From Trichobilharzia szidati (taxonomy: Eukaryota; Platyhelminthes; Trematoda; Strigeidida; Schistosomatidae), in the NCBI GenBank assembly GCA_944472155.2, contig OX235277.1, positions 33,800,804 through 33,864,803 on the forward strand: a stretch of 64,000 nucleotides of DNA, in the 5' to 3' direction. Of the stretch, positions 33,287-53,340 are shown piece by piece. How positions within the stretch are numbered: the stretch's first letter is position 1; the number at the start of each line of letters is the position of its first letter. The position numbers and the translations under genes were made by a program. The notes under the pieces were generated by a model. It saw nothing but the letters and a program-made list of their open reading frames with translations. It did not search any database and had not been told where the DNA came from.

Positions 33287-33493
33287 ATGGAACCAAGTAC
33301 CGTTATGCTTTTATCTAAATCATCTGAAAATTATATTTGCCTAATGTGTGTGGATTCATTTCATTCAAAGAATGAATTTTTCAATCATCTCGGCATTGAA
33401 CATGATTTCTTGGATTTGTTACATCATAAGAATCAATCCTTTATCAGTACACAATTTGATTGGATTCGATTTGTAAATTATGTTCGGAGGAAT
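33287..33493 (+). CDS. PRMT3: PRMT3 exon A1: zinc finger, copy 1
   Basis: The exon follows acceptor TTCAG at 33234-33238; the ATG at 33287 is preceded by an in-frame stop in the presumed leader, so this copy can only be a first coding exon. It encodes 69 residues: a short N-terminus, then a C2H2 finger C-X2-C-X12-H-X4-H (CLMC ... HLGIEH), and the FDWIRFVNYVRRN helix. The donor GTGAGC at 33494 follows a complete codon (phase 0). In PRMT3 proteins this finger is the substrate-binding domain. Copy 1 lacks the acidic N-terminal tract seen in copies 2 and 3. Against copy 3 I count 25 of 54 identities from the finger Tyr to the exon end. Confidence 0.8.
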
Positions 33494-33699
33494 GTGAGCT
33501 TAAAAACAGAGTTGTCACTCTTCAATTAATTTTTATTAATTAATATCTAGAATACTTTTAATGTATCTGTACAAAAGACTACTAAATTTTATAAAAAGAA
33601 TCTGTCTTAGCACGGTTTATATTTTATATTTTGTATAGATAATATTTAAATTCTAGAGTAAGAATAGGAATCAAACATGTATTAATCCTTTTCTAATTA

Positions 33700-34080
33700 G
33701 TATACTTGTCTGATCCCTTCTTCAACGAGTCGATTGAGAGTGTAGACATTACTTGTTTCGGGAATCGGTTCCAAAAGTTTATAATTCGATGAGAGAACCA
33801 GTTCTCCACAGCGATTCAGTTCCTTCTTGACTTTTGAACTCTCTTGCTATGCTCTCTAAGGTGTTCCAACTTGGTGAGAAGAAGAAAGAAAGAACAGATG
33901 AAACTCGTCGGCATTTCTTAGGATTTTGAGCATTGTAATGAGATTCCTCTGTCCACGATGTAATATGGAGAAGAGATTCAAGCTGTTAGGTCCCTCCTCG
34001 TATGATAAATTAGTCATATTAGGGAGCATACATGTGACCTTTGAACCCCTTCTAGAATATATGAGTTTCGCTTAGGACAA
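33700..34080 (-). pseudogene. LINE ORF2 C-terminal fragment in intron A1-B1
   Basis: On the minus strand, broken frames read NLFSILHRGQRNLITMLKIL, KLEHLREHSKRV and NWFSHRIINFWNRFPKQVMS, the standard tail of Jockey/CR1-type ORF2. It lacks RT. It differs from the tails at 4897 and 17250, so it is another family. Confidence 0.6.
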
Positions 34081-34429
34081 CGGTAGACTGCTTGGATTCA
34101 GTTTTCTAATTTCCAGAAAGGTACATAAAGTAGTGAACATTTCAGTGGTAACGTTGTTGTTGATTAACGATTATATCTGACTTTTATAGGACATCTGTTC
34201 AATACTACTAGGTTAGTCCATAGTCAGTGGTTAAGGTGAATTGCTTCTGTAAGGAAATTGTTTTAAAAGATACGCATTCAAATGCTCACGAATTTGTATT
34301 TCATTGATATATAGAGAGACTATCTCCATTATTCGCCAATAAAATATTCATACCCCTATTGGAATGTGTAGACTTATCTTGTTAATTTTTCATCAGAATA
34401 AAAACAAGAACCTGGTATTAAGGGTAGGT

Positions 34430-34910
34430 GCAGAGTGTTTGGTAGGGAGGGGAAATCCATTGACGAGGCAATGAAGATGCATCGATTGCGATGGCTAGGA
34501 TATATGTTAAGCATACTGAGTCATCGTTTTTCTCATTGAGCAATGTTAGCTGACGTAAGATTGGACTGGAAAAGACATCGTCAATCCATGAAGTCTTTGA
34601 CTATTGATTTGAGCCACATAGTTGTAAATAGCCTAGTTAGTGTCCTTGAAATGCAGTGTTGATGAAATGGCTCAAAGTGATTCTCAGTGGTGCAGATATA
34701 TTCACACTTTATACTCTCGTAGATTCATTAAGTCCTCCACATGTTTATTTCTTCTCTCGTACACTTCTCATTATAGTTCCTGCTAATTTTTCTTCTCTTC
34801 TATACCTTCGTGTGGAATATAGATTGTGGAAACTTGCACTGGTAGACTTCTGTGCAAAGTTCTACGTTGAGTTTAGTGAGTCCGTTAGTTTGTAACTCTG
34901 CAGTTACGCA
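34430..34910 (+). pseudogene. RTE-like LINE 3' fragment
   Basis: Reads REGKSIDEAMKMHRLRWLGY near the start, the L-R-W-L-G-H motif that marks the C-terminus of RTE-clade ORF2, then drifts into a T-rich tail with GTGCAAAGTTCTACGTTGA. Related copies, in either orientation, occur at 37190, 41020, 42480, 44470, 50720 and 57950. Confidence 0.6.
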
Positions 34911-35174
34911 TCAGTTACTATTATACTGATGTTATACAATCATCAGGATTGGAATCCATTGTTTTGTTATTGACTAATTTATCCTTGGACTACAGCTTTT
35001 ACTGAACCTTACAATCTACATAAAGTTATCAAACACAGGTATCATAGTGATGAGATTTAAAGTGCACAATTAAGATAATACGGTTTCTTATTTTTATATA
35101 GTGATAAACTGGTGAGTTATTCGCTTTCCTGACATCCATTGTAGCGTTATTTGTTTGTAAATTCTCATTTTTAG

Positions 35175-35277
35175 AAACCACATGATTTACGACAAGCGTT
35201 CTATGATGGTGAATGGAAGACAGATTCATTAGAACTACTTTATCCAGTCCTGTCTGACGATGAAGTTCTGTCTATCG
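35175..35277 (+). CDS. PRMT3: PRMT3 exon B1: linker after zinc finger, copy 1
   Basis: A 103-nt exon between acceptor TTTTTAG (ends 35174) and donor GTAAGT (35278). It encodes KPHDLRQAFYDGEWKTDSLE and then LLYPVLSDDEVLSI, ending one base into a codon (phase 1). It corresponds to the segment after the finger in animal PRMT3 (the W-K-x-D/E...L-x-P-V-L-x-D-D pattern). I count 28 of 34 residues identical to copy 3. Its donor phase matches exon C and also the acceptors of exons A2 and A3. Confidence 0.8.
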
Positions 35278-35639
35278 GTAAGTTAGATCTGAAATTTCTG
35301 AAGTGTCTAGAGTGCTTAGTTAATAGATCAAAATCCAACTACCAAACTGATTTTCTTGTCAATACTAGACCATTAGTTATATTCAAGATCATAGTCTAAG
35401 ATCTAACCTTTTCTATACCTTACTACCAATCAGTACCAGAAGTTATGAATTTATAAAATAAATAACTTGTTTTTCCATGTTAGTTTGCAGGGATTTGATT
35501 GGTATTGCTTTAGGACTTGGAAGTGTGCACCCATGATGACTTATCTACCTGAGATGAAAATCAAGACCTTCAAGTTACGAAGGGTGTCCGTTGACTATTC
35601 AGTCATTGGTGCGGAATGCAATGGCCAGTGCGTCAGTCC

Positions 35640-35860
35640 TAACTTCTGTCAGTTCACGATGTATAGTATCACCGCCAGTGAATGGTGTCGGTGAGGATTT
35701 GTGATCACATCCGACCTGGTGGACCCCACTGGACATAACTTCTCACTTCATCTGGTAACTAGTCACAAGTGATCACTAGATAACCGATGACTAGGACGAA
35801 ACAGCTGTCCTATAAGTCTTCCGTAGTTTTCAGTGGTTCTGTAACATAACTTTCATTTTA
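35640..35860 (+). repeat. SINE-like repeat with decayed hammerhead core
   Basis: GATGA (35786-35790) is followed by AGGACGAAACAGCTGTCC (GAAA at 35798-35801, stem III CAG/CTG, cleavage triplet GTC). This is the schistosome Sm-alpha-like hammerhead core with stem II shortened. The tail TTTTCAGTGGTTCTGTAAC matches 60700-60730. Probably inactive. Confidence 0.55.
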
Positions 35861-35879
35861 GCGAAATTAATAGTATTTG

Positions 35880-35960
35880 TATCTGGTAAGTGATAGTCAC
35901 CAGTGGAATTCAAGACGCGCGTTTCGACCTACTTAGGATTCGTCTTCTGACTGTGCCTCT
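35880..35960 (-). repeat. Second hammerhead-bearing repeat, opposite strand
   Basis: On the minus strand GACGAATCCTAAGTAGG is followed by TCGAAACGCGCGTC and TTGAATTCCACTGG. It keeps GAAA (35922-35925), a CGC/GCG stem III and a GTC cleavage triplet, in the same order as the Sm-alpha hammerhead. The first core box is altered. It lies tail to tail with the repeat just upstream. Confidence 0.6.
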
Positions 35961-36780
35961 AGCTACCTACTATCAATCAAATACCATCACTTTCACCTGA
36001 AAGCACCGTCGAAGTCGATCGAGTATTTCAGTTCCATAAAATCGATTAACAGGAAGTTTCAAAAGGCTGATTAGGGAACAAAGAACGACATTTTCTCGAC
36101 AACGCTTTTTGTCACTTTCTACAGTTAAACATACATAATAGTTAAAGACTTATTGTTCTGGTTGTCAACATTAGTGTTTTGAATAATATTGAATCAATAA
36201 TATTGACAGATTATAGTTCGAAAACATCTGTAAGTGATAATATGCATCAGTTTAATACTGAACTGAATATCAAATAAAATTAGGAATTTATAGGTCCCAT
36301 AGCAGGCTAGGGTAGCATAGGTGAGTGGACCTGTTTCTTTTACGCACAGCTCTGGTTGTTTTAAGTGAATCACAATGGCCTCTACTGTTTGGAGTGTTTG
36401 ACACATACATTCCTTTGGCAGTTTATTTGGTATTCTCAAGATGATAGAAGAAGACTCTTCAATGCTAGTTTTGTTGTTTGTTTGAACGAGGTGATCTAAT
36501 ATAAGACTGTTGATGGTTTTAACTATTACCTTTATTTAGCCACACTGGTAAGTGTTGCGGATCATGAAAAACTAGGTTCCTGGAGAGACGGCCAGTATAT
36601 AGCTGGTTGCACAAGAGCCGTTGAACTGATAGATACTATAAGTGTCTAGCCTATGGACTTGCTTTTTCAGTTTCGGAATCACAACCGGTTGTATGTAAAA
36701 TTTGAATTGCAGGATATTCGAAGCAGTTCCAATTCAATGATTTCATTTTGTTTATTTTCTCATTTTTCAACCCTCCGAAG

Positions 36781-37067
36781 ATATTCTTGATTTTCAAATG
36801 CAAACTACAGTAACACCGACACCACCGACAATCTCAAATAACTCAAATTCCAATGGACACGAAGATGATATTACAATTTTATCGCCTAATTCACATATTG
36901 CTAATTATTTATGCTTGATATGCTCGTGTAAATTGGCGTCAACAACGGAATTTTTTTTACACCTAACTTTAAAACATGATTGTATAAATTTTCTGGATGG
37001 AGAGTATCATTCAGTGTTCAATGACCATTTCAATTGGATTCGATTTGTTAATTATGTTCGAAGAAAT
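36781..37067 (+). CDS. PRMT3: PRMT3 exon A2: zinc finger, copy 2
   Basis: The acceptor CTCCGAAG ends at 36780. The first ATG is at 36798, but the frame is open back to the acceptor and enters in phase 1 (GAT-ATT-CTT-GAT when joined to the G left by exon B1). The exon encodes a Thr/Pro/Asn-rich, partly acidic N-terminus, a C2H2 finger C-X2-C-X12-H-X4-H (CLIC ... HLTLKH), then FNWIRFVNYVRRN, and ends with donor GTAAGT at 37068 (phase 0). All zinc ligands are kept. I count 28 of 54 identities with copy 3. It could be an alternative first exon using its own ATG or an internal exon joined to B1. Confidence 0.8.
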
Positions 37068-37189
37068 GTAAGTCAAATTTTCTGATCCACAAAAATGTGT
37101 GTGTGTATGTATTGTATATAGACTTCATTTTAGACAGTTGGAGGTAATCGTCAGGACACCTTAAACTTAGGCTACTTGCTTACTGACTG

Positions 37190-38345
37190 ACTGAGTTTCA
37201 ACGTGTAGAACTTTGCGGAGAAGTGCACCAGTTCAAGTTGCCACACTCTGTGTAGCACAAAAACGTAGACAAAGCAGAGGAAAAAAGATTCAAAAGAACT
37301 TTGATCAGCACAAATGTACTGGAGAAGGAATAGCAGCATGGAAAAACTTGACAGTTTAGTACACATGGGAGATCACAGAGTGAATGCATCCTCTCTATTC
37401 AGAAGGATTTTGAGCTATATCACCAGTGGTTTCCAGATATTGATTGTTAGCGTCCCGAGGACTGCAAATAGGTAGTTTACACCTCTTCACGTGGTTGGCT
37501 GGAACTAACTGTCAGAGACTTTATGAACTAATGGTATGTCTTGATTTCACCACTCCTAAGTCGTCTCCAATCTAATCCAATGTCGCCTGACATTGCCCAT
37601 CGAGGAATGCGAATTGCTGGACATATTCAAAACATGTTTTCTAGCCTTCTCAATCGATTCACCCTCACGACGTCATTGATTGACTTTCCTTCATCATCTA
37701 ACACTCTACTCCTAACTTCAATACTACTCACCATATTATACCATATTATAGAACGCAAATATCTGTGGTCAAAAATAGCTAGTCGTTTCATATTTTCCAA
37801 TTTCATTGGCCATGTCTAACTCATAAAGGGGGACAGAGCTAACTGGTGTGCAGTAAACATATCATTTGATCGATATCTGGATATCATGTTTACTCCAGAG
37901 ATGACACTCACTCGAAAGATGTATCTACGATTTCTTGAAGGAACTGATGCATTTTTCAAGTTATACTCAATGGTATAGTCAAACACTTTACCACTGCTTG
38001 GGGTGACGGTTGTCTCTCCTTAGAACAGTTATACGTTGAACTGACGATCGAATACGCAGAGCAAGACAGTCCGCACCGAAGCATTGCAGACCCGGCCTTT
38101 GATATCCAGGCTAACGTCACGACGGCGTCAAAGGTGGCTCAAGTTGACGTATGCTACCCTAGCCTTCATGATATGGTTGGAAATCCCGTCCGTCATACCT
38201 CCGCCAGCACTCACACAACTACCCAGATACACGAACTTATCGACAACTTCAAGTAGTTCATCTGGAAGAGTGAGTGCAGGTACAGGCTACTACCAATCTT
38301 GTAACAGTATTTGCGCTTAGACGGTGTAAAGCAGATGTCATACTT
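37190..38345 (-). pseudogene. RTE-like LINE RT C-terminal part
   Basis: The minus strand encodes DKFVYLGSCVSAGGGMTDGI and ARVAYVNLSHLWRRRDVSLD near 38100-38290, then a LRWLGH-like block near 37600 and the T-rich tail with a GTAGAACTTTGC phrase near 37200 (as seen on the plus strand). These are the thumb and C-terminus of RTE-clade ORF2. Several stops break the frame. Confidence 0.65.
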
Positions 38346-38771
38346 ACAGATACAAGTTCTAGCCATGTTGTTGTTCACTTTGTTGTATCTTAATGAAACT
38401 GAGATGAAACATTATAGAGAGTAACATCAGAACACTAATATGTGTTTATTTTAGAGATTGATAAATTGCTGAAAAGAGATTTCTTCACAGAATGCAAAAC
38501 AAACGGCAAGTAGTTCAAGGTTTTTCAGTAACATATTCCTTAAAGTTGAGTTGTCTTAATTTTAATATTGAACTTATTTTCCCGCATCATGAAAAGCGTT
38601 CATCTTAAAAAATGGACGTATTTCTACCATGGGCATAGATTTATGGACTGGTAAATACATATATTGCTGTTTGACATATTGATGCAAGCACTTGCCCAAG
38701 AAGTTGCAGGTTGAAATGCTGACTTGCGTAATCCAGTATATGTTACCGTGTATTAACTATGCCTTTTGACG

Positions 38772-38774
<3 letters not shown>

Positions 38775-38812
<38 letters not shown>
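38775..38812. repeat. (TA)n microsatellite
   Basis: An uninterrupted AT dinucleotide run of nearly 40 bases in the A2-B2 intron. Similar shorter runs occur at 53385-53414 and 59050-59067. Confidence 0.9.
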
Positions 38813-38813
<1 letters not shown>

Positions 38814-38820
38814 CAAAGTT

Positions 38821-40300
38821 GCCTAGTAGTAATATATATTCTCATGTGTCTATTTAATCATGAAACCAGTTCATTAGTTTTATCAATTATGGTAGGATAT
38901 AGTGCAAGCACTATTCGTTGAGAGCCTTTTAACCTTTCCACACATCTTAAACTATCCAATTCACACTAACCAACTAACTACCGAGGTGTATCTGATGGTT
39001 TCACACATTAACTATTTTCGCACACAAGCAACAACAGAGCTGACATATTTGTGTCTATCGGTGATTTCTTTTGCCCATGGTTTACCTTGACTGAGTTCGT
39101 ATTTTAACGGAGTTCTCGATATTCTGGCTGTATTGGTTTCGGCTCTTTACTCTCAACCAATATTACAAGGAACCAAACAATGAACTCAATTAGTGTGCAA
39201 AGTGCCAGAATAAAATTCAAGTCAATAAAGAATATTGAGACAGTATATATTATAGATATACAGATGAGTTATATAAGGTAATGGTTACTTCGGATTATTG
39301 TCATAATCTACTGGCAGTTGTTCACCAGTTCTTGAAGAGTCTTTAAATGAAGACGAGGTGTTCCTGTAAGTTCCGAAGAATGCGAATGGGAAGTAGAGAA
39401 GAAGGAAGACAGTAGCAATCAGGAGGAAAACGAAGACAAAGAGAGACAGCACGACTGTGTTTTCATTCGAACGCGATTCAACAAAAGTTATGTACAATGT
39501 GTCTATTTTTAACATTTGGCAAAAACTGTACAAATTTATTGGTTAGGACTTCACATTGTGTTGCCCGTTTAGTTCTGACTCCGTTTAGGGAGGTTTCGGT
39601 ATCTCGGTAGCGTCACAAATCATGACACAGTACATGTGGCTTATTGGTGTAGTAGTGTGTGTTCTACGATTTTTCTGACAGTTACATAATTTGGGATAGC
39701 ATTATTAGAAGGCAGAGTTCATCTGAAAAAGTAAATTGCGTATTTGCTCAATACATTTCACACAATCTGAGCATACATGTTTATTTGTTAAATCAATATG
39801 TATGAAAAGTGAATATAATAAAATGTCAATTTAAAGAAACAAAAGGATAAGAGATTTAAAAACAAAAGGGATAACAATAATAATAATAACGCTACTCTTG
39901 GTAATACAATCACACGAGGATTACTAAGACAGGTTTAGTCTTAATAGTAAATTGTTTTTGTACACACAGAAGGAGGAAGGCTTCAATTTTACGGATAGTT
40001 ATCGTCTCAGAGTATTTCAGTGTGCATTCTTGAAAGCTGTTTTAATCTCAGTGCTGTGATTCGTATCAAATTATAAGTGTTTTGCTGTAGACGATATTCG
40101 TAGTCTGCCTTGTTTCCTTTATCAAGGTTTCACAGTTCAGCTGTTTTTCAAACCATTTGAGTATTTCGCCTACCCTCAAGTGCTGGAAGTTGCGATAATT
40201 CTTCCCAATGTATGTGTGACCGCATACGCACACATGCAAACTGGTATACAATATAGGATGTGATATAATCACTTGATTTGAGTTACAAAACCGCTGGAAA
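38821..40300. other. Intron sequence without a clear repeat family
   Basis: Apart from the possible membrane-protein frame, this stretch of the A2-B2 intron shows only an (AAT)n run near 39876 and no recognisable element. Confidence 0.35.
39285..39515 (-). CDS. Possible nested small membrane protein
   Basis: A minus-strand frame inside the A2-B2 intron of PRMT3 encodes 76 aa from ATG 39515: a short N-terminus, a long hydrophobic span at about residues 21-47 (VVLSLFVFVFLLIATVFLLL then YFPFAFF) and a polar, Ser-rich, acidic tail. Composition looks like a single-pass small integral membrane protein, and no repeat family overlaps it. I do not recognise a family. A T-rich low-complexity origin or an exon of a larger antisense gene are alternatives. 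Confidence 0.35.
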   Translation of the reverse strand: MLKIDTLYITFVESRSNENTVVLSLFVFVFLLIATVFLLLYFPFAFFGTYRNTSSSFKDSSRTGEQLPVDYDNNPK

Positions 40301-40309
40301 TCAGGGAGC

Positions 40310-40500
40310 ACTGATGGTCACTGTTTCGTCCTGATCCCAGGCTCTTCAACAGTACGCATCCATGACCCTACTGGGGATGTGACCCGGTACCTTCAGGTTA
40401 CGGGATGAGTTTGATGACCAACTGGGACAGAATTCAGTGACCAACCCGTGAATTGTCGAACCAGTTAAATCCCTATAAACGAATACTTTAAAAATAATCA
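40310..40500 (-). repeat. SINE-like repeat with decayed hammerhead core
   Basis: On the minus strand: GCGTACTGTTGAAGAGCC, GGATCAGGACGAAACAGTGA, with CTGTTGA at 40352-40346 and GAAA at 40327-40324. The order equals the copies at 60550 and 48740. The tRNA-like part lies at higher coordinates (GGTTCGACAATTCACGGG near 40450). Stem II is imperfect. Confidence 0.55.
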
Positions 40501-41019
40501 CGTGGAGTCTGTCGAGGCTTTCCGTAAAGTATGTTTATAGCTTTTTTGACAATTATAATCCTGGTTGTATTGATAAGTTTTACGGATGACACAGAATTTA
40601 GTCTCTCTTTAAAATCTTACTGTAACGGTAAAAGACAAGAGACTTGGTAACGGAATGCTTTTATGGAATTTGATATCTCTACATAGGGAAATTGTGTACA
40701 ACTTATCTTAAAATCGTCATTTGCACAAATCTTTCGTGTTGGGCGCTACTTCTGCCCTTTGTATTGTGTTTCTTTGTCTTCTTTTTGTGTCTCCCATGTT
40801 TTGCTGCAACACTGGTTCATTTGCTCTCTTTGACGTTAAGTCTATCACTCTGCTATTTGATATTTTTGTGCTGATGAACGACTCTTTATATACTACTGAT
40901 AAATCTTGCCAGTAACACACGTCACACTACTATTATATACTTCTCTGTTGTAAGATAATTTGATGTAGACATTGAAAGTGGAAGACATGAAAAGCCTGGC
41001 TAGCTGTCTTTGATCATAA
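40501..41019. other. Intron sequence, no supported feature
   Basis: Two overlapping hydrophobic frames at 40692-40915 arise from a T-rich tract; neither has a convincing start context or family resemblance. Confidence 0.3.
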
Positions 41020-41660
41020 GTGCCTGCGTTCTATCTCCCGTGTTAGGTGGTATAATAAGGTGGGCAATATTGAGGTTAGGCTTCGGTCGAGTGCTAGGTA
41101 AGGAGGAAGGGAAATCAATCGACGAGGTTGTGAACCAACTGCATCGATTGAGATAGTTAGGACATTTGTTACATATGCCTAGCTTTCGCTTTCCTCGACT
41201 GCGGGCAATGTTAGCTGACTGACATAGGATCAGGTTGGAAAAGAGTTAGCTAGTGGTGGTCAAACGAAAACATGGCTTCATCAGTCAGTGAAATCCACAA
41301 CAGTTAGTTTAAGCCTGCCATGTAGGGAGGTGTAGATTAGCTTCCTGGTTGGGGTGTTCGGGATAGTAAAAACCAATGAAGGCTGGTGACAATCGGTGAT
41401 ATGGCTCAAAGTCATTCTCAATCGCTGGCGCAGATGCATCCACCTTTTGTGACTTATCCAATAAAATTCTGTTGTTCTTCCATATTACTATTCTTTTTCC
41501 CTCAATCACACTTCTATTTATTATCTCTGTTTTGAATCTGTCTTAACTCTCTTCTCTTGCTTTGTGTGCTACATGGTCATGGAGTGTGGCTACTCGAACT
41601 GCTGCACATCTGTGCAAAGTTCTACATCTAAAGCAGTCAGTCAGTCAGTCAGATGTTGAC
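41020..41660 (+). pseudogene. RTE-like LINE 3' fragment
   Basis: Reads LRLGFGRVLGKEGKSIDEVV then LHRLR-LGHLLHMPSFRFPR, the C-terminal RTE motif, then GWGVRDSKNQ and a T-rich tail ending in an (AGTC)n run at 41636-41651. It matches the minus-strand copy at 57950-58640 especially well. Confidence 0.65.
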
Positions 41661-41861
41661 ATCTTTCTTTTGAGACCGTATAGATTATAGGCTTTGAAAA
41701 AAATTAACTGACCACGTAACTGCTGTTGTATATGTCAGGGCATATTTTTCTAGACACTGCTTCATTGAATTGAATCGTATCGTCATATATAAATACAGTT
41801 CTATATGTCCATGATTTGTTTGTAAAATAAATTTAACACCTGCTGTTTATTAATTAAAAAG

Positions 41862-41964
41862 AAACCATCAAATTTACGTGAAGCATTTGCATCAATGGCT
41901 TGGAAAACTGATTCATATGAATTACTGTATCCAGTGTTAATGGATGATGAAGTGCTGTCTATTG
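41862..41964 (+). CDS. PRMT3: PRMT3 exon B2: linker after zinc finger, copy 2
   Basis: A 103-nt exon after acceptor AAAAAG (ends 41861) and before donor GTAGGT (41965). It encodes KPSNLREAFASMAWKTDSYE then LLYPVLMDDEVLSI in phase 0-1, the same as B1 and B3. I count 25 of 34 residues identical to B3. The acceptor has a weak, A-rich run in place of a polypyrimidine tract, so this exon may be spliced less efficiently. Confidence 0.78.
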
Positions 41965-42479: not shown

Positions 42480-43480
42480 TATACTGTTTGAACCAAATTA
42501 TCCGCCTAGAACTTTGGCACAGAAATGTTTCACTGCAAGTTCACACACCTTAAAAGTTCTACCCTGCCCAATTTTGTTCAATTTCTTCATTGAAGTACTA
42601 ATGTGAGTGGTCTTAAATGACTGTGGCCACATAGGGATCGACCTCTTACCAGGGTACAGTCTTGTCAACTTAGAGTATGAAGATGATACTGTCTTTCTAC
42701 TAGTTGAAGACACGGACAAAATACAGAGTCTTCTGAACACTTTGAGCAGAAATATTCGAATGTTTGGCATGGGATTCGCCCCTGTCATATGTAAAATGAA
42801 GCTACAGGATTGTACTGCACCGATTCCTAGCTGACCACTTTGCTTATATGGGAATTTGTATTAACCCTAGTTAATTAATTTCAGACGATATCTCATCATG
42901 GATACAAAAGCCTCATTCTGCATTCTGTCTTCCGTGTTAGGTTGTATTATATACTCAGTAATATTGAGAGTAAGCATCAGTGTTAGGTAAGGTAGCTAGA
43001 TCGATTGATATGGCTAGGACAAGTGTTGCAGACACTAGTCATCGCTTCCTTGGACGAGCAGTGTTAACTGATATAATTAAGTTGGAAAAGGTGTAGAGAT
43101 AGTCAATTCAAAAGCTGGAATCAATCCACGAAGACTTTCACGAAATCCGTCTAAGCCACTTAAGGAATATTGGAATACTTACAACCAACGGTGGGGGGGG
43201 GGTATTATGTTGGTATTATAGTTCTAAGTCGTTCTCAATGGCGCGGATACATTCACTCTTTGTAATCTTCCAGATTTATCAAGTTCTCATGTATTTCCAT
43301 GTTACTATTTTTTCTCTCGTACGTTTCTGTTCATTATATTTCTTTTTGATTTTTTCTCTCTTCTTTATCTATTTGTGTGTGTTACATGGAGTGTGGCAAT
43401 TTGAACTGGTTCACATGTGTGCAAAGTTCTATACGTTGAAACTTAGTCACATTCAGTCTTCGTGCAAGAATACTTAGAGA
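42480..43480 (+). pseudogene. RTE-like LINE RT palm and tail
   Basis: The plus strand reads CPILFNFFIEVLM, then LVNLEYEDDTVFLLVEDTDK near 42660-42720 (the catalytic YADD has become YEDD), then LLNTLSRNIRMFGMGF and CKMKLQDC. After about 42860 it decays into the LRWLGH region and the T-rich tail. A G10 run at 43192-43201 lies within. It is an inactive RTE-clade copy. Confidence 0.65.
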
Positions 43481-43734
43481 AACAAAGAGAAAATAAATTC
43501 AAAGAAACTATTATTAAATAGAAATGTGTACGATAAGTTCATCGAAAGTAATGAAACTTTGAAAGAATTTGAAACATCAGTAGAAATACATCTGTGCCGT
43601 TGAGAACAATATTACGTTAAGACATCAACACTCTTCATCTATTTATTTTTTTCATCTCAAAAAAAACACAGTCAGGTAGTCTACAACCTCTTCCTCTACG
43701 TAGCTCAAATTTACAGTGAAGTTCTGTTGTATAA

Positions 43735-44060: not shown

Positions 44061-44469
44061 TCATGGTAATCCTCATACATCCTTAGATAGTCCGTGTTAG
44101 GATGTGACATGTCAACAGACGCCGAACACTTCACAGTCCAATGTAATCAATCAACGAGAAATACAAAATTAACCATGACAAATGATGTGTATGTCTTGTT
44201 GTCTGTATTATATCGAATCTCTTGTAAAGATTCACTTATTGAGCTGTAATTCTTCTTCTGGAAGTCTAGATATTAATATATGCGTATGTTTTATTCACAA
44301 CAACAAAGATTTTTGGATTTGTCAAGTATCGGTTTTCCAACGGTTCTCTAACTGATGTCAGTTCATGATAAAATCCTCCAACCAATTTTCGGATTTGTCT
44401 AATTTTGCTGCTTTTGTTTTATTTCTATTGAGTGTTGTAAGCGTTATTATTCCAGGTTGGATATTGTAT

Positions 44470-44900: not shown

Positions 44901-45159
44901 TCCAGTGGTCCTTTAGCTGATATATATAATTTAACTGGAAACCAATCAAATCCCTGCAAGGCGACACTTGAAAATTGATCGAATGCTCACTAGTGACAAA
45001 ATCAAGAGATCTGTTATTGTTGTGTGGCATAATTCAGTATATTGCAGCATATATTTTTCTCGTGTTTTAAGTAGTGAACAAATATTGTGGCTAGCATTAA
45101 AAATCTCAGTGAGAAATACGATTGATTTGCTGGGTGGTAGGGTTTCTTAACAAATTTGT

Positions 45160-45400
45160 AGAAGGAAATAGAGATAAATCGGGTACACTCTGAAGAGATT
45201 GTTGGGTGACATGCCAAGCACCACACTCTCAAGTAGGAGGAGGCGAGCATCGAGTTCGGTGTGCGTTCGAAGGTGATATAAAGGAGATAAGAGCTTATGG
45301 GAGTCTTGGAGCCAGCTAAAAAGAACACAGTAGAAACCAGGATGAAACTGAGATACGCTGTTGATGTCCCCACCATGTTACAATCGGAACACAAAGGAAT
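45160..45400 (+). pseudogene. RTE-like LINE C-terminal remnant
   Basis: A heavily decayed frame corresponds to the IGHTLR-rich C-terminus of the RTE copy at 52840-53100 (same order, including a LEPAKKNT-like LKRTA segment). Only position and order support it. Confidence 0.35.
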
Positions 45401-45639
45401 AATAGGTAATGACTGTCTTTTTCTCCTGGGGGTTATTCGCTTCTTTCATTGTTAAACAATTTAACCCCAAATCAATAACCATTCATTGGGCTAGTAACAT
45501 TGTTTCATTCCTTTTTCTCTTTTTTTTCAAAGTTTATTTGTATTTTACAACAGTAAAGTACATCACACTGAAGACTAGTTGTTTTCAAAGAAGGCGAAGT
45601 CCCACTAACACTAATACTCTTCTTAATTTCACTGCATAT

Positions 45640-45883
45640 ATATATGTATATAATACTTTATTCCTTTACGTTCCTAGTGGAACACAGGGCTTCAAGCTGG
45701 AGCTTTGAAGTTTCGGTAGGAGTGGTTTATATTTTTACGGGATGGAGTTGTTAGCCACAAGCCCAGCGTTTCCTCTTTACTGACTTTACTACTAGCTTAG
45801 CGAGGTTTAGGTGTGAGTCGGTCGAGGAGCAATCCTCGGACCACGTGCTTGGTTGGCGAGCGTTCTACCATTGAACCACCGAT
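45640..45883 (-). mobile_element. tRNA-Gly-derived SINE, minus orientation
   Basis: On the minus strand the head reads GCATCGGTGGTTCAATGGTA followed by GAACGCTCGCC, which is very close to a eukaryotic tRNA-Gly 5' half, then a degenerate B box. The body reads AAGCCAGTAGTAAAG-like sequence and ends CTTGAAGCCCTGTGTTCCAC. It abuts an 18S rDNA fragment at 45884. Confidence 0.75.
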
Positions 45884-46044
45884 GCTACTACCGATTAAAT
45901 GGCTTAGTGAAGCCGTTGGATTGGTGTCGTTGCAATGGCTTTGTCGCTCGACTCATGCTGAGAAGCCGACCTAACTTGACTGTCCAGAGGAGAAGTAAAA
46001 GTTGTAACAAGATTTCCGTTGGTGAACCTACGGAAGAATCATTA
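45884..46044 (+). rRNA. 18S rRNA 3'-end pseudogene fragment
   Basis: The sequence follows the universally conserved end of eukaryotic 18S: GCTACTACCGATTAAATGG, a helix-44 region, GAGGAGAAGTAAAAGTTGTAACAAG, and GGTGAACCTACGGAAGAATC then ATTA. The normal GTCGTAACAAGGTTTCCG and CTGCGGAAGGATCATTA carry several substitutions here, so it is a diverged copy, not a working rRNA gene. An apparent 68-aa frame over it is an artefact. Confidence 0.85.
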
Positions 46045-46165
46045 CAAGATTTCTCATAAAAACCCTTGTGAAATATGGCTATTGTACTGGTGTGCTGCGT
46101 CATGCCATTAAAGGTATTGGTCGACTCCTGTCCAGTCAGTTGGCACTTAAGGATGTATGCCCCGA
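46045..46165 (+). pseudogene. ITS1 fragment following the 18S copy
   Basis: Directly after the 18S end, CAAGATTTCTCATAAAAACC and GAAATATGGCTATTGTACTG continue, then GGTATTGGTCGACTCC. This resembles the start of schistosome ITS1 as I recall it, and the position is exactly right. It shows the copy came from rDNA or pre-rRNA rather than mature 18S. The end near 46165 is approximate. Confidence 0.6.
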
Positions 46166-48117
46166 AGATTAATTTCACTGGCAACTCTATAATTAATAAT
46201 AATAGCTTAATATAATTTTTCAATACTTAATTGAATTGCATTGTATAGATTCATACTGCAATCTGTCTATAAGTGTTTGGTTTCATTTACTAACATAGAA
46301 TGTACTACAGTTGTCGATCAATAAATTTAGCCTGTTAATACTACTACTACTGATCATAAAAGCATCTGTATATAACTGTCATGCCTCACTGAATGTATGA
46401 ATACTTACCGCCAAATTAAAACTAACTTTTCTAAATATTAACTCGAAAAAAGTTTTTTCAAAAGTAATATCGAGTTGTTTTTCTTAAAAATACAAACATT
46501 TTAATTTATATTTTATCAACTTTTTCCTGACCGGATAGCTGCTACCTTGATGTGGTTGTGGGGCCTGCAAATCGAGATGATCCAACGAACTACACTGGCT
46601 AGACCTAATGTTGCTACAGGTCCTACCATGCTAGAAAGATTGTTTGGATAGCGGTTAAACGAAAAGCAATTACCATTATAGTGTTAATTGTTTACAATAC
46701 GTTGTGGGGGGGGGGTTCTGTGGCGAACAGGGATGCAGCAGCAGTATATTGTTTCCCTCAGATGACCACCAGCAAGCCAAGAATGTTACGAATCCGTTCT
46801 GGAAAGGGTGGGTTAGAAAAGATCGATCCCGAAAATTGTACATCCGAACTTATATTGCGATGGCCCGTATTTGCTTGCGAAAAGATCTTAATACGGACGC
46901 AATTCCAAAATCTACTTCAAACAGGTTCTGTGTGTGTGTGTGGTCGACCTGCCTCAAACAGCTGTTCTTTGGCTTTGTGGTTATGCAGCACACTAATGCT
47001 TCTCTTCTGTTTCAGGTACTCCAAGAAGGAACCAACTTCCATGGTGTGTCTGTTTCCGGAAAGTAATAACTGCTCATACTCATAAACACAGAGAGCTTCC
47101 CTGACTATCTCCTCACCTTATTATTAACAGTTTATGGCATAGGTTGAAAATTGATTAATATTGAATCATATTTGGTGAGTGATGATGATATCAGGAAGTT
47201 CGTAACACCTACGGCCTGGAAACCTATAATGATGATATCTGTCTTAAAGTGAAGTCAACATTCACTAGAAAGGGGGAAAATCTGAAAGCAGGCGTCTATG
47301 CTAATTCCGAAGAACAAAAATTCCATCCTATCTACTATCATGTTACACAACTTATTCAAGGTGAATATTAATAGTCTCATTTTTAATAGTGAATTAAGGA
47401 AGAAAAGAAATAATAAATTATTGATTTTTAACCATATCTGGTCTGTGTGTGTGTGTACAAATTACTTTTGCACAATAAATAACTAACATTGTGTGTTCCG
47501 TTTTAATATTGAAACTTTTGCTTGATGCATATACATGTATATACACATATTGCTGTTTGTTTTTAGTTGCATGTTTATAGTATATGTATATATATATAAT
47601 GCAGGATTCATTTGTGTATTTAAACTTTTCAGTGCTTGTTACACACACATATATGTAAGGGCCGAAATTAAATTGGATGGAAGGGGATTCCCCACCTGGG
47701 TTAGAAGTAGTGTGTGTGTTCAAGTCATTGAGACAAATTTTCAATTCCGTAAATGGCAGTAAATTGTTTCATTTATCAGGCTTGTTAGAGATATTATAAT
47801 TTGTTTTATTATGGCTAATGATACTACCTAGTAGTAGTAGTAGTTGTTTAGGCTTTTATCGACTAAGGCGGAATTTGAAACTAGAAGTGCCTTGTGTAAA
47901 AGTGGTGTACTTAAGACAGAAGCCAGCGCATCGCATTTTGATACATGTATAAGAAACACATATGAGATTGTAGCTTGTTAATGAATGAGGGCTAGAGATT
48001 GTTAGCTAGTGAATTTGAATCTTGAAATAGGTTATTCTCTGGTGCTAGTGATGAGTTTGAAAATCGGATGAGACAGTTCTCAGTATTTTTAAAAGTTTCG
48101 TTATTTCTCCAGCATAT
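46166..48117. other. Intron sequence with simple repeats, no gene
   Basis: Contains a G9 run near 46705, (GT)n at 46929-46940 and 47441-47454, and (TA)n/(AC)n tracts at 47580-47660. The frames at 46681-47085 do not match any family I know. Confidence 0.35.
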
Positions 48118-48129
48118 ATGTATACATAT

Positions 48130-48364
48130 AATGCAGTTATTTATTTATTTTATTCCATTGAGTTCCGACTGGAACTTAGGGCTTCAAGCTTGAGTTTTGA
48201 AGTTTCAATAGCGTCGGCGTTTAGTTTTTACGGGATGAGGTTGCTGGTCTCATGCCTAACCTTATTACCGGCTAAGCCAGGTTTAGCAGTGCGTCGGTCG
48301 GGAATCTAACCCCGAACCATGTACGTGGTCGACGAGTATTTTATCACTGAACCACCGATGCACA
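48130..48364 (-). mobile_element. tRNA-Gly-derived SINE, minus orientation
   Basis: Minus-strand head GCATCGGTGGTTCAGTGATA (48362 downward) is nearly tRNA-Gly, with a B box GGGGTTAGATTCCCGAC. The body shares GGCATGAGACCAGCAACCTC with the copies at 17036 and 19160 and ends CTTGAAGCCCTAAGTTCCAG then TCGGAACTCAATGGAATAA. It is the best copy for recognising the tRNA origin. Confidence 0.85.
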
Positions 48365-48739
48365 TTGGTAGAATGGTAATAAATTCCTCGATATTGAGTA
48401 ACAAGGACTCGAACATCAGGAGGAATAAGTTTAGTCCATGTTGTAAAAGGAGCTGCTTACTGATGAGCATCAGCAAACTTGAAAAAGGTTGAATAAGCGA
48501 AACTACATTATGACTGACTTGTAGTACAATACACTACCTTAGTACTGTATTCATGAGTTTGGTAATTACCAAATAATCTACTGTGGATAAAACTTACCTT
48601 ATTCTTTTTGAATCAGATGTCTGCATAATTGACCACTGGGCAATATAATGCTGGTTAGCTAATTCGGAAAACACTGCATTATCTACATTTTGAGTCTTTT
48701 GTGGAATATTAATCACTTTTAAATGCGCAGATGTCGTCA

Positions 48740-48910
48740 CAAATCAATGAGAGTTAGAAAGTCAATCGTTCAACCAGTTACTACTACCCCTGTCGTAGGC
48801 TGAAAGTTCTCGGTGAGATTTCTGGTGAGGTCATATGTGTATGCGTACCACTGAAAAGTCTCGAACTTGGACGAAATATCCCATCATGATTCCCTTAATT
48901 TTGTTGGTTC
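48740..48910 (+). repeat. SINE-like repeat with decayed hammerhead core
   Basis: GCGTACCACTGAAAAGTCTC, then CTTGGACGAAATATCCC, with CTGAAAA at 48851-48857 and GAAA at 48873-48876. The order equals the copies at 40310 (minus) and 60550. The stem II pairing is weak. Confidence 0.5.
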
Positions 48911-48929
48911 ATGATGAAATGAGCATCCC

Positions 48930-49120
48930 TTGCTTACATTCCGAGTGGAACATAGCGCTCCAAGCTTGAGCTTTGAAGTTTCAGTAGTAACAGTGGTGTT
49001 GTTTTTTTACGGCGTGGAGTTGCTAGCCCACCCTTTCCTCTTAGCAGCTAGTTAACTAGTATAGGTTTGTTCGAGTGTGTCGAGCGGGGATCGAACTTGG
49101 ACCACATGCGTGGTTGTTGT
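48930..49120 (-). mobile_element. Decayed tRNA-derived SINE
   Basis: Carries the SINE body phrases ATTCCGAGTGGAACATAGCG and AGCTTGAGCTTTGAAGTTTC and a degenerate B box region (GGGGATCGAACTTGGACC). It lacks the first part of the tRNA head. Confidence 0.6.
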
Positions 49121-49699
49121 AATATAAATAAACTCAATGGCATATTTATATGAATACTGACTAATATTGTGAAACTCGTCATTTCCGAATAACACGGTTC
49201 AAGTTGAGAAATCACCAAAGTTTCCTTTAATTATCTGAGGTATTCAGATCACAATATGTGATCTGCCTGATCTGCAGATAAATGTCAATCTAGGAAGCAT
49301 GTGAAATAACACAGTGACTTCATACTAATGATTGATGTGAGTAGTGTGTAGTGATAGTAGAAAGATCTAAATGCTATACGTCCGTTTCACTTTTTTGCGG
49401 TTCATTGTCATCAGTAATGTACATGGTTTGACTCAGCTCATGGAGCTGAATTAGTTGCAAACCACTGGAATTCCGGCAACCAAAAACTGTGTAATTTGGA
49501 AATATGAGATAAGTAGTGTTACAATACTGTTGAAGGTCGAACATATATCTATTAACCGAAAAAGACAAATCCTATATGAATAACTTACAGTAACGTGAAT
49601 AAAACTTGTTTTTCTATGATGTTAAACAAAATGAGCTGAGAAATTTAGATCACAGAAGAGTGCATTGCTTATATATACATATATATAGTCCGCTCACTG

Positions 49700-49950
49700 A
49701 CTGGTTTTCAATTGGTTAGAACACGCTCATCATATCTAGGCCTATACATGAGTCACACATATAACGTAATGGCCAATGATATTACATGGTTGTCTAGACA
49801 GGAGTAGTTAGATGAAGCGGGTTTCGAACCTGCGATCAACTGGATGACTGAAATCGGGGTTAGCAAGTAAGACTTCTCAGTTTACCAGTCATAATTCAAT
49901 TGGCAAAGTCTAGCGTAAAAAATCGTGATTAACACTTGTCAGCCACACAC
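49700..49950 (-). repeat. tRNA-like repeat with B box
   Basis: On the minus strand GATCGCAGGTTCGAAACCCG (about 49817-49836) is a perfect pol III B box context. The flanking sequence does not fold as a full tRNA, so it is probably a third SINE-type repeat. Confidence 0.4.
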
Positions 49951-50337
49951 GCACTTAAAAACATTCCAGTGAGTAGTAGTAATTTCCCCCCTCCGTCGTC
50001 GAATCGAAACCAGACATCACTATATCAGACACTATAGTTTTGGTCATTGGATCGATCACAAAACTACGATAGGCGACGGGAAATTATTTATGCTCCTCAA
50101 TAGTATGGTTCATGTTTGTTTGTTCATGATACAGTAATTTCAAGATTCCACATGTGGAATGATCCTGATGACTTGATGATTCCCGACAGAAATCCCACTG
50201 TTATTATAGTCGGACAGTTGAAGACATGTAAATTTACAGTTTATTTTAGATATGTTTAGTGTAACTTTTGTTCTGAGGGTTATTTGGTTGGGAATTTACC
50301 CCCCCCCTTATCCTCTCTCCCTTACTGTCTTCTACAG

Positions 50338-50603
50338 ATATGAGTGAATTAATTATACCTAACGGTAATTCAACGGATTCAGAATATGATTCAGATGGTT
50401 GGCAAGAAGTTACAGTGCCTGATTCAGCTTCACCAGAAAAATATATCTGTTTAGTGTGTGATGTACATTGTGATTCTGTAGTTGGATTTTTTCGTCATCT
50501 CACTATACAACACGAATGGGTTAACCTATTAGATGGTGAAGGCAGAAGTATATTCAATGATCAATATGATTGGATTCGTTTTGTAAATTTTGTGCGTAAA
50601 ACT
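50338..50603 (+). CDS. PRMT3: PRMT3 exon A3: zinc finger, copy 3
   Basis: The acceptor CTTCTACAG ends at 50337 after a long C/T tract, and the ATG follows two bases later (50340). Joined to the G of a B exon, the first codon would be GAT and the ATG would stay in frame, so the exon works either as first or internal. It encodes an acidic N-terminus (STDSEYDSDGWQEV), as in animal PRMT3, then a C2H2 finger C-X2-C-X12-H-X4-H (CLVC ... HLTIQH), then YDWIRFVNFVRKT, with donor GTAAGT at 50604 (phase 0). Of the three copies this one best matches the family and is likely the ancestral one. Confidence 0.85.
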
Positions 50604-50719
50604 GTAAGTCGTATATATATATATATCATTTCAATTAGTGATATCCATTTTTGTTGGTGGAGGCTGGATGCCCATTTTCCTTTATTTTTTGTCTAATATC
50701 ATCATAGATCTACTACTGG

Positions 50720-51250
50720 GTGTGACCCTGATTAACTCTAGCAACTTGATACCAGGACAGAGTTTCTTTGATTTGTATAAAGTATACAGATAGTATGGTT
50801 ACGTAAACAGCCTTCTAAACACCTTGAGTAGAAGTATTAGTATGTTCGATATATGTTAGTGGATGAGGTTGTAAAGCTGCATTAATTAAGATGCCTAGGA
50901 TATGCATATATGCAAGCCACCTCTTGCTATGTTGACTGACCTTAGAATTATGATGTTGGTAAAGAGTTCGAGATAGTCAAACCAGAACATGTCATGAATC
51001 CATGAAGTCTTTGACTGTCGATTTAAGCCAGTAAGGATCAGTAGACTGTCTAGCAGGGTTTGTTGAGTCTCTAAGGACCAATGTTTGGAGATTGTCTGCA
51101 ATATGATTCAAAATCGTTCTCAATGAGACAGACGCATTTATTCTTTCTGATCTTTCAGATCCATGGAATACTCATTATTCTGTATGTACCTACTCTTTTT
51201 CCCGTATATTCTTGTTTATTGTAGTCAAGTTGTTGTGGCACCTGATGGAT
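50720..51250 (+). pseudogene. RTE-like LINE fragment in intron A3-B3
   Basis: Decayed frames follow the RTE copy at 42480: LLNTLSRSISMF near 50820 and CKPPLAMLTDLRIM near 50930, then the T-rich tail. Stops are frequent. Confidence 0.5.
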
Positions 51251-51389
51251 GGACTATCATGCCAGTTATCTATTGTAATTAACAGTGTTATTGGCTCAAT
51301 CAACCTGTAGTCCGGCTTCAGCTAGTTTGAATTCTACATAATTTGTAGATTTCCATTTAGCTTCAGTTATCTGCTTACTTACTCACTCA

Positions 51390-51690
51390 TATTATTATTA
51401 TTCATTCATCCCTTTTGTTCCGAGTTCAAAATAGGGCTGTAACATCACTTCCAACTGACTCCGCGATTGCCCAGAAGCTTTCATTTCCCGTTAACATGAT
51501 CTTCTCCTTGTCATCCTCAAGCCCACCGTTCAATTGATAGTTTTCCATTCTGGTTCCACTCGAGGTTATGGTGTGTGATGTCAGTCAACGTCTGCTTAGA
51601 GTACGTTCAATCCGTCTCCATTTCCTTCCTCATTAATTGAGTAATAGGTTTTTGGTTGGTTCTCTGCCTGCCTATCAGAGTTCCTTGCTG
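51390..51690 (-). pseudogene. RTE-like LINE 3' end, minus
   Basis: Carries GTTCCACTCGAGGTTATGG-like and CAATCCGTCTCCATTTCC phrases that match the antisense of the RTE C-terminus at 52850-53100. It overlaps no intact frame. Confidence 0.5.
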
Positions 51691-51829
51691 CTTGTTCTTT
51701 CTAGTCATGCAACTGATCTTCACTACCATCGAACGAAGAGAGTTGTTTGTTGGTGAAAGTTCACAACAGGATGCTGCAAAATGATTTTATTTACGTGCAT
51801 GATAAATGTCTAAACCGTATGGAAGCACT

Positions 51830-53140
51830 GACTGACCACCTTGACCGTAGTGTTATTAATTCAAACCTTGTTTACTGAATTTCAAGTCAATACTTCTATA
51901 TATTTGACCGGAACAAGCTAGATTCAGGAAAGGTCAAATTGCAACTCTACGCATCAACATCGAACAAAGTAGAGAGTGGCAATCAAACCTTTCTCCACCT
52001 CAACTTCATCAACTTCGAAAAGGTTTTCACCAGACAGCGTTGACCGAGAAGTAATTTAGAAACTACTTCAACACTACGGCGTACCTCAAGTATTTATTAA
52101 CCTGACTGAACAGCTATATGACAATAGCAAGTGTCAGGTGATCCACAAGGGAAAACTCAACCGGGCGTTCGGAATGCCTACAGAAGTAAGACACGGTTGT
52201 ATATTATCACCGATGATATTCTCAATTGTGGTGGACTGGATTATGCGTCAGACTTTGAGTGGGGAGTGATGAGACAGGAGTACTCTGGACCACCGTTAAG
52301 GAGATTCTAGAAGATCTGGATTTCGCAGATGATACATATCTAATGTCACATAAACTCGAAGACTTGCAAGCGAAAACCAACAAACTGGCTGAAGAAGCAG
52401 GCAGCGAAGACAGGAGTCCAAGAAGACGGAGGTGATGAAGATAACCAACAAATAGCACCAACTATTATCAACGAAAGAAACTTGAAAGAGGTTACATCCT
52501 TCACTTATCTAGGAAGCATTGTTTCAACCACAGGCGGAACAGATGGAGACGTTAAAGCAAAAATCGGAAAGGCAAGATACACCTTCATCAACCTGAAACC
52601 AGTTTGGAAATCTTCTGCACTCACCCAGTATAAACAACAACATTTCGGATTTTCAACACCAATGTGAAGTCAGTTCTATTGTATGGGTCAGAAACTTGTA
52701 CTGCGCGTCACAAAATGCATTTCCAACGGGTTACTGCAGACTTTTATTAACAGCTGCCTTCGGTGGCTATCTATTGAAGATGAAATGGCTGGCCAGATAG
52801 AATTAGAAACAAGAAACTATGGGAACAAGCTAACCAAGAACTCATCGTTCAACAAATATGTAGGAGGAAATGCAGATGGATTGGGCACACACTGAGGAGA
52901 GGAGACCGTTGAATGACATCGCACACAATGCAGGCCATCAATCGAGTGGAACCCGAATGGGAAGCGACTAGTGGGGCAATGGTGCGAGGGTGACATGGAG
53001 AAGATCGTGTGAGGAGGAGGAGGAGATGACAGATTATGGGCAATCTTGGGTGCAGCTGAAGAGGACAGCAGAAAGTAGAACAAAGCAGAGGTGTGTTTTG
53101 AAGCTTTATTTTCCACTCGGAATCCAAGGGAACAATAATA
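51830..53140 (+). pseudogene. RTE/SR2-like LINE reverse transcriptase, degenerate
   Basis: Plus frames read a QVIHKGKLNRAFGM block, VRHGCILSPMIFSIVVDW, then EDLDFADDTYL-like sequence around 52320 (the catalytic FADD), FTYLGSIVSTTGGTDGD (52500-52550), KARYTFINLKPVWKSSAL, and the C-terminus TWRRSCEEE...SWVQLKRTAESR (52990-53090). This order is that of RTE-clade LINEs such as schistosome SR2. Several frameshifts disable it. It ends in TTTTCCACTCGGAATCCAAG, a tail shared with the tRNA-Gly SINEs. It lies about 100 bp before exon B3. Confidence 0.75.
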
Positions 53141-53237
53141 CTTATATATATTATGGTTTAGTGATAATTTGTAAATTAAGTCGTAATTACCTGAGCCTCT
53201 TTTTTGTCTCATCAGTAAGCATTTGTGTTGTTTTTAG

Positions 53238-53340
53238 AAACCAACTGATTTACGTCAAGCGTTTTTTGATATGGTTTGGAAAACAGATTCCCTTGACTTA
53301 CTTTATCCTGTCTTAACAGATGATGAGGTTTTATCAATTG
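53238..53340 (+). CDS. PRMT3: PRMT3 exon B3: linker after zinc finger, copy 3
   Basis: A 103-nt exon after acceptor GTTTTTAG (ends 53237) and before donor GTAAGT (53341). It encodes KPTDLRQAFFDMVWKTDSLD then LLYPVLTDDEVLSI, phase 0 in and phase 1 out. Joined to exon C it gives S-I-D-I-E-S-Y-L, a smooth continuation. It is the closest copy to the constant exons and the most family-like. Confidence 0.85.

What the first reader, a model, noticed from the sequence alone, without database searches (positions are those of the whole stretch)
33287..53340. PRMT3 carries three tandem copies of its zinc-finger substrate-recognition module
Seen: three exon pairs (33287-33493 + 35175-35277; 36781-37067 + 41862-41964; 50338-50603 + 53238-53340), each an open C2H2 finger exon followed by a 103-nt linker exon with the same phases, upstream of one set of shared exons leading into the methyltransferase domain. 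All three fingers keep C-X2-C-X12-H-X4-H and the WIRFVN helix. By my count the fingers share 25-28 of 54 residues with copy 3, while the linkers share 25-28 of 34. Known: animal PRMT3 has one finger that recruits ribosomal protein uS5. Inference: conserved scaffolds with diversified finger surfaces suggest isoforms with different substrates, analogous to mutually exclusive exon clusters.
Basis: partly seen in the sequence, partly recalled or inferred. Interest (0 to 1): 0.95.

Follow-up and report, generated by a model that had tools for sequence, protein, structure and literature searches.

The report
Three-finger PRMT3 gene in bird schistosome
In a blood fluke, likely a Trichobilharzia bird schistosome, the gene for the protein-modifying enzyme PRMT3 holds three open copies of the zinc-finger module that related flukes' PRMT3 protein models show once, and the three are predicted to be strung together in one protein that would hold its targets at several points.

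Summary
Three homologous exon pairs (finger exon A plus 103-nt linker exon B) stand in one direction upstream of a single set of PRMT3 exons leading into the methyltransferase domain. Frames are open, splice sites are GT-AG, silent sites between copies are near or at saturation while the proteins stay alike (purifying selection), and no catalytic exons were found between the copies.
The organism is not a sequenced Schistosoma: the A1-B1-A2 stretch is 94% identical to a Trichobilharzia regenti gene model (P0027), while S. haematobium, S. japonicum, Fasciola and Paragonimus models show one module.
The 'mutually exclusive exons' reading is weakened. Double inclusion is in frame (A2+B2 = 390 nt, A3+B3 = 369 nt), introns are long, A1 is closed upstream by an in-frame stop and so can only be a first coding exon, and the T. 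regenti model joins B1 to A2 at the junction seen here. I favour serial inclusion: one PRMT3 with three tandem modules, or one to three by exon skipping or alternative start. Alternative promoters are the main rival. No transcript was seen, so isoform use, and any effect on substrates such as uS5, is untested.

The parts
30814..31265 (+). Upstream neighbour: short mL53-like gene (name by recall; exon borders and end judged by eye)
   Evidence: First 58-59 residues 46-47% identical to the N-termini of Paragonimus models P0006 and P0028, which run on into PRMT3; P0005, a third Paragonimus model, lacks it; no Pfam hit for a 58-residue piece and no telling PDB hit
33239..33286 (+). Candidate 5' UTR part of exon A1 (possible acceptor; in-frame TAA at 33266)
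   Evidence: acceptor is a candidate only
33287..33493 (+). A1: finger exon 1, starts with ATG, ends phase 0
   Evidence: in T. regenti P0027
35175..35277 (+). B1: 103-nt linker exon, donor phase 1
   Evidence: 0 differences to P0027
36781..37067 (+). A2: finger exon 2, acceptor phase 1, internal ATG at 36798
   Evidence: B1-A2 junction identical in P0027
41862..41964 (+). B2: linker exon 2 (weak polypyrimidine tract at acceptor, by eye)
47158..47176 (+). 19-nt exact copy of the start of exon C, without an AG before it: possible relic of a duplicated exon C
   Evidence: longest match in 1000 Markov shuffles was 16
50338..50603 (+). A3: finger exon 3, acceptor phase 1, ATG 2 nt after the acceptor; closest to the single Schistosoma finger
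53238..53340 (+). B3: linker exon 3
56724..56916 (+). C: shared exon (DIESYLV ... NNC), single full copy
59128..59273 (+). D: shared exon (SSYFGSYGHFEIHGEMI), single copy
63323..63518 (+). E: shared exon with SAM-binding motif I (LDVGSGSG); the catalytic domain goes on beyond the window

Best explanation
This is a PRMT3 gene that holds three tandem copies of its N-terminal module (C2H2 finger, helix and linker; one A exon plus one B exon), which are predicted to be spliced in series into one protein with three modules in front of a single methyltransferase domain. Shown: three open, constrained copies; a phase-1 donor at the end of each B that fits A2, A3 and C alike; one set of downstream exons within the window; the B1-A2 join in the T. 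regenti gene model. Inferred: the full A1-B1-A2-B2-A3-B3-C transcript exists, and the extra modules raise avidity for uS5 or widen the range of docked substrates. Because A2+B2 and A3+B3 are both multiples of three and A2 and A3 keep early ATGs, shorter forms with one or two modules would also be in frame; the A3-only form would be the ordinary PRMT3 of Schistosoma.
For: All seven serial combinations tried read through C, D and E with 0 stops. T. regenti P0027 is A1-B1-A2 joined at exactly the window's B1/A2 junction, 187 of 199 residues identical. A1 has an in-frame TAA 21 nt before its ATG, so it can only be the first coding exon, while A2 and A3 are open to acceptors of the phase that a B donor needs. 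Constraint: Nei-Gojobori pS 0.63-0.87 against pN 0.13-0.34 between copies; 0 of 6 within-module differences to T. regenti fall on the 62 of 140 positions that all three copies share (P = 0.027). tblastn of whole S. haematobium and S. japonicum PRMT3 finds no catalytic exon between the modules. Same upstream neighbour as in 2 of 3 Paragonimus PRMT3 models fetched, so this is likely the orthologous PRMT3 locus. Of the 28 proteins that my three searches returned, P0027 alone has two fingers by pattern; 9 have one and 18 none.
Against: No transcript seen. P0027 is an automated gene model that stops in the intron after A2 (204 aa on a 9.2-kb contig), so it does not show A2-B2, B2-A3 or the link to catalysis. 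A2 and A3 each keep an ATG 17 and 2 nt after the acceptor, as first coding exons would. The phase fit could be chance (about 1 in 9 for two acceptors). The B2 acceptor looks weak. None of the 28 proteins carries three modules.
Confidence: 0.5

Rival explanations
1. Alternative promoters or trans-splice sites: each A is a first coding exon with its own ATG, and each A-B pair is joined to C, giving three PRMT3 isoforms with one finger each.
For: All three A exons have an early ATG; A1-B1-C, A2-B2-C and A3-B3-C are all in frame; the A3 ATG matches the start of the S. japonicum protein. Pillmann et al. 2011 (PMC3228551, passages read) say that alternatives of terminal exons most probably are multiple promoters or poly(A) sites. 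Reported flatworm spliced leaders end in ATG (PMC12582326, passages read).
Against: The T. regenti model joins B1 to A2; residues DILDFQ before the A2 ATG are kept in T. regenti; both acceptor phases fit B.
Confidence: 0.25
2. Mutually exclusive splicing of the three A-B groups from one 5' leader, giving isoforms with different substrates.
For: Homology, similar length, same phases and splice types among copies, which are the criteria of PMC3228551; finger parts diverged more than helix and linker.
Against: Multi-exon groups rather than single internal exons; double inclusion is in frame, introns of 1503 and 8373 nt lie between units, all sites are GT-AG, so three of the usual blocks to double inclusion are absent (the list of blocks is recalled); no common coding exon 5' of A1.
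Confidence: 0.12
3. A1-B1-A2-B2 is a separate finger-only gene beside an ordinary one-finger PRMT3 (A3 on).
For: P0027 ends without a catalytic domain; the longest gap, 8.4 kb, lies between B2 and A3; ZNF277 is a known competitor of PRMT3 for uS5 with five fingers (PMC10216425, passages read).
Against: The end of P0027 reads into the intron after A2, as expected for a truncated model; B2 has a donor that fits A3 and C; AATAAA in the B2-A3 gap is near expectation (8 against 6.1).
Confidence: 0.1
4. A1-B1 and A2-B2 are decaying relics, or an assembly error.
For: Only one module is seen in the Schistosoma, Fasciola and Paragonimus models fetched.
Against: Open frames and intact donors and acceptors (A1: donor only) at near-saturated silent divergence; A1-B1-A2 also present in the T. 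regenti assembly at 94% identity; copies only 45-51% alike over the finger core, so not an assembly duplicate.
Confidence: 0.03

Closest known systems
PRMT3 of animals with one C2H2 finger (mouse 1WIR; S. haematobium P0001; S. japonicum P0002)
   Same: Finger spacing, helix and linker, exon C, YFGSYGHF and SAM motif I; module 3 is the closest to Schistosoma (71 of 87 identical to S. japonicum)
   Different: Three modules instead of one
Trichobilharzia regenti gene model P0027
   Same: A1-B1-A2 in the same order and with the same junctions, 94% identical
   Different: Stops after A2; no link to the catalytic part shown
Mutually exclusive exon clusters (Dscam; S. mansoni dynein heavy chain, as described in PMC3228551)
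   Same: Homologous exons of similar length with conserved phase
   Different: Here two-exon groups at the 5' end, with nothing seen that blocks double inclusion
ZNF277 (multi-finger uS5 binder, PMC10216425)
   Same: Several C2H2 fingers; uS5 as a possible partner (inferred from PRMT3 at large)
   Different: Not described as a methyltransferase; homology was not tested

Membership tests
PRMT3 | N-terminal C-X2-C-X12-H-X4-H finger followed by helix and linker | tested here: met
   3 of 3 modules; phmmer of module 3 finds 1WIR, E 3.4e-4 (modules 1 and 2 were not given to that search); Foldseek of the P0027 model (module 1 well modelled) has 1WIR first, E 3.5e-3, TM 0.54 by target length, none below 1e-3; the A2 exon model gave no significant match
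PRMT3 | Pfam PF21137 (ANM3_C2H2_Zf) above the gathering score of 27 | tested here: inconclusive
   14.6, 21.2 and 22.7 bits for modules 1-3; S. haematobium and S. japonicum PRMT3 also miss it, 19.0 and 20.4
PRMT3 | Type I PRMT catalytic domain | tested here: inconclusive
   YFGSYGHF and SAM motif I present; exons D and E align with S. haematobium PRMT3 residues 176-287; the rest lies beyond the window
Mutually exclusive exon cluster | Homologous exons, similar length, same phase and splice types | tested here: met
   (A1 differs: no required acceptor, shorter 5' part)
Mutually exclusive exon cluster | Single internal exons with a shared exon on both sides | tested here: not met
   Two-exon groups; no shared coding exon before A1, which is closed by TAA at 33266; PMC3228551 files such groups under tandem duplication or trans-splicing and terminal ones under multiple promoters. 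A shared non-coding 5' exon is not excluded
Mutually exclusive exon cluster | Something that bars double inclusion (short intron, mixed splice types, frameshift) | tested here: not met
   Introns 1503 and 8373 nt, 390 and 369 nt in frame, all GT-AG; the list is recalled; docking/selector RNA pairing was not tested
Mutually exclusive exon cluster | Exactly one alternative per transcript | not testable with these tools
   No transcript of this locus was found in the three protein searches
Tandem array of symmetric (1-1) domain units | Repeated unit flanked by introns of the same phase, in frame | tested here: met
   A2-B2 and A3-B3 are flanked by phase-1 introns if B1-A2 and B2-A3 are spliced; 7 of 7 combinations open

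The most novel reading that the evidence does not exclude
Bird schistosomes built a PRMT3 with three serial substrate-docking modules on one methyltransferase, and can tune it to one, two or three modules by splicing or start choice; as PRMT catalytic cores work as dimers (recalled), an active enzyme would carry up to six docking modules.
Probability: 0.4. Interest if true: 0.62.

Novelty: new variant of a known kind. Interest (0 to 1): 0.5.

Why it matters
PRMT3 is described as a one-finger enzyme whose finger is needed to bind uS5, while a predicted complex suggests that the finger itself does not touch uS5 (PMC10216425, passages read). A natural gene with three diverged fingers on the same helix and linker separates the conserved part from the variable part and so makes the question of which part reads the substrate directly testable. 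If the modules are used, it also shows a ribosome-linked housekeeping enzyme changing its docking domain count within one family of flukes.

Tried and rejected
Looked for separate catalytic exons per copy: tblastn of exons C, D and E, blastn and tblastn of whole S. haematobium, S. japonicum and Fasciola PRMT3 find none between the modules. Weak hits set aside as chance: exon E on the opposite strand at 48417-48307 (E 0.010), exon D at 54857 (E 0.10), P0001 at 44136-44192 (E 0.89). Looked for a fourth module: none in the window. Tree of 12 module sequences: branching among modules 1, 2, 3 and Schistosoma unresolved; AU tests rejected neither modules 1-3 together (p 0.19), nor module 3 with Schistosoma (0.38), nor modules 1 and 2 together (0.56), so I do not date the duplications. 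Three protein searches returned 26, 6 and 1 hits (28 different); one search scored only 7993 candidates at E 1e-5, and the database is clustered at 90%, so isoforms could be hidden, made to catch short pieces of transcripts, returned P0027 alone. I read the sequences of 10 of the 28 and counted motifs in all 28 by script. AlphaFold2 of P0027 modelled module 1 well (block means 72-89 for residues 11-90) but not module 2; the A2 exon alone gave a hairpin plus helix at pLDDT about 82 (mean 59), and Foldseek matches only at E 0.69 or worse, so the fold of A2 rests on sequence. The bacterial promoter scan says nothing about this animal gene. Literature: no three-finger PRMT3 found in searches 'PRMT3 + Schistosoma' (7 papers, seen as a listing), 'PRMT3 + zinc finger + exon duplication' (0 papers), 'PRMT3 + two zinc finger' (2 papers; passages of one read, where the phrase refers to demethylases; the other not read), 'PRMT3 + zinc fingers + tandem + flatworm' (0 papers); most subscription papers are not held. 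A look for blocks to double inclusion in PMC9013439 found no passage. Searches were seen as listings, apart from the papers named as read in passages.
Full report
What is there. The window holds, on the + strand, three finger exons (A1 33287-33493, A2 36781-37067, A3 50338-50603), each followed by a 103-nt linker exon (B1 35175-35277, B2 41862-41964, B3 53238-53340) and then one set of shared exons (C 56724-56916, D 59128-59273, E 63323-63518). Every A-B join is phase 0; every B ends in phase 1; A2, A3 and C all begin in the phase that a B donor needs. tblastn against the whole window gives three A and three B loci and nothing further of weight. The best database matches of the joined exons are PRMT3 proteins of Schistosoma haematobium and S. 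japonicum, and module 3 finds the solved mouse PRMT3 finger 1WIR at E 3.4e-4. All three fingers keep C-X2-C-X12-H-X4-H. Pfam's PRMT3 finger model stays below its cut-off for each of the three modules, but it does so for the two Schistosoma PRMT3 proteins too.

Are the copies alive? Between copies, silent differences are near or at saturation (pS 0.63-0.87) while replacement differences are much fewer (pN 0.13-0.34). With that much silent change, open frames and intact splice sites are not expected of relics; a random stretch of this window stays open over 207 nt in 3.6% and over 287 nt in 1.7% of 20,000 draws. The end of the A exon with the WIRFVN helix (8 or 11 of 11 identical per pair) and the linker (25-28 of 34) are kept best; the finger proper shares 10 of 22 per pair.

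Which animal? The stretch A1-B1-A2 is found as a 204-residue gene model of Trichobilharzia regenti (P0027): 187 of 199 residues identical. The A3-to-E part is only about 69% identical to Schistosoma (best local alignment over 55-56% of the query). The window is therefore likely from a Trichobilharzia-like schistosomatid other than the T. regenti sequenced (inference). The P0027 model goes from B1 to A2 through the codon split seen here (…VLSI-D-ILDFQM…), so two assemblies agree on the order A1-B1-A2, and a separate annotation chose the same junction. Its last five residues correspond to the start of the intron after A2, so it is probably truncated. None of its 6 differences within modules hits the 62 positions (of 140 compared) common to all three modules (P = 0.027); the other 6 of its 12 differences lie in the less ordered stretches before the fingers.

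Other flukes. S. haematobium, S. japonicum, Fasciola gigantica and Paragonimus models (P0001, P0002, P0004-P0006, P0028) show one module (that of P0028 with an incomplete finger). By motif count over all 28 hits, P0027 alone has two fingers, 9 have one and 18 none (many of these 18 are fungal or matched by the catalytic part). Module 3 is the closest to Schistosoma by sequence (71 of 87 identical to S. japonicum, against 54 and 52 for modules 1 and 2) and by place next to C. Two of the three Paragonimus models begin with a short upstream gene fused to PRMT3 (P0006, P0028; not P0005); a similar N-terminus, 46-47% identical, starts at 30814 in the window, about 2.5 kb before A1. So the array likely sits at the old PRMT3 locus, between that neighbour and the old first exon. 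Whether Schistosoma genomes hold unannotated A1 or A2 could not be tested; the module tree does not resolve the order of duplication.

How it most likely works. Three of the usual blocks to double inclusion (recalled list) are absent: the introns between units are 1503 and 8373 nt, all splice sites are GT-AG, and 390 and 369 nt keep the frame. All seven serial combinations tried read into E without a stop. No catalytic exon lies between the modules when whole Schistosoma PRMT3 proteins are searched against the window. A1 is closed by TAA at 33266 and can only come first; A2 and A3 are open to acceptors that fit B. The simplest default product is A1-B1-A2-B2-A3-B3-C-D-E, a three-module PRMT3. 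If the A2 and A3 acceptors had only ever served 5' leaders, their phases would fit by chance about once in nine. Against this, A2 and A3 keep ATGs 17 and 2 nt after the acceptor, so single-module forms from other promoters remain possible (0.25), and true mutual exclusion less so (0.12). Function is inference from PRMT3 at large: the finger domain is needed for uS5 binding in yeast and human cells, yet a predicted complex has no contact of the finger itself with uS5 (PMC10216425, passages). Copies that keep the helix and linker and vary the finger could thus add avidity for one partner, or add partners; no call here decides.

Known or new? Tandem exon duplication and multi-finger proteins are well known; a PRMT3 with three modules was not found in my searches, which cover open papers only. 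I file it as a new variant of a known kind.

Noticed in passing
window 47158-47176 and about 36186-36196: The gap between modules 2 and 3 holds a 19-nt exact copy of the first bases of exon C, and the gap between modules 1 and 2 an 11-nt one (E 0.064, may be chance); the 19-mer exceeds all 1000 Markov shuffles. Possible relic of a larger ancestral duplication unit.
   Followed up: partly
window 52773-53146 with 55797-56164; 37188-37425 with 43211-43449; 40970-41653 with 57925-58604: Inverted repeats (91%, 75% and 83% identical; three of five repeat pairs found at E 1e-20) lie in the introns on both sides of B3, of B2 and of B2-to-C; their pairing in the pre-mRNA could affect splicing, or they are just transposon pieces.
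   Followed up: no
window 30814-31265 (+): Short mL53-like gene (name by recall), similar to the start of two Paragonimus PRMT3 models that fuse such a gene to PRMT3.
   Followed up: partly
window 5523-8186 (-), 12226-13257 (+), 27493-28332 (-), 20625-21023 (-): Non-LTR retrotransposon ORF of 888 aa with endonuclease and reverse transcriptase, two further reverse transcriptase ORFs (one below Pfam's cut-off), and a DUF1759 fragment just below cut-off.
   Followed up: partly
window 2-1342 (-) and 10044-11111 (-): Two reverse transcriptase-like ORFs with long near-identical translations, seen by eye: copies of one element.
   Followed up: no
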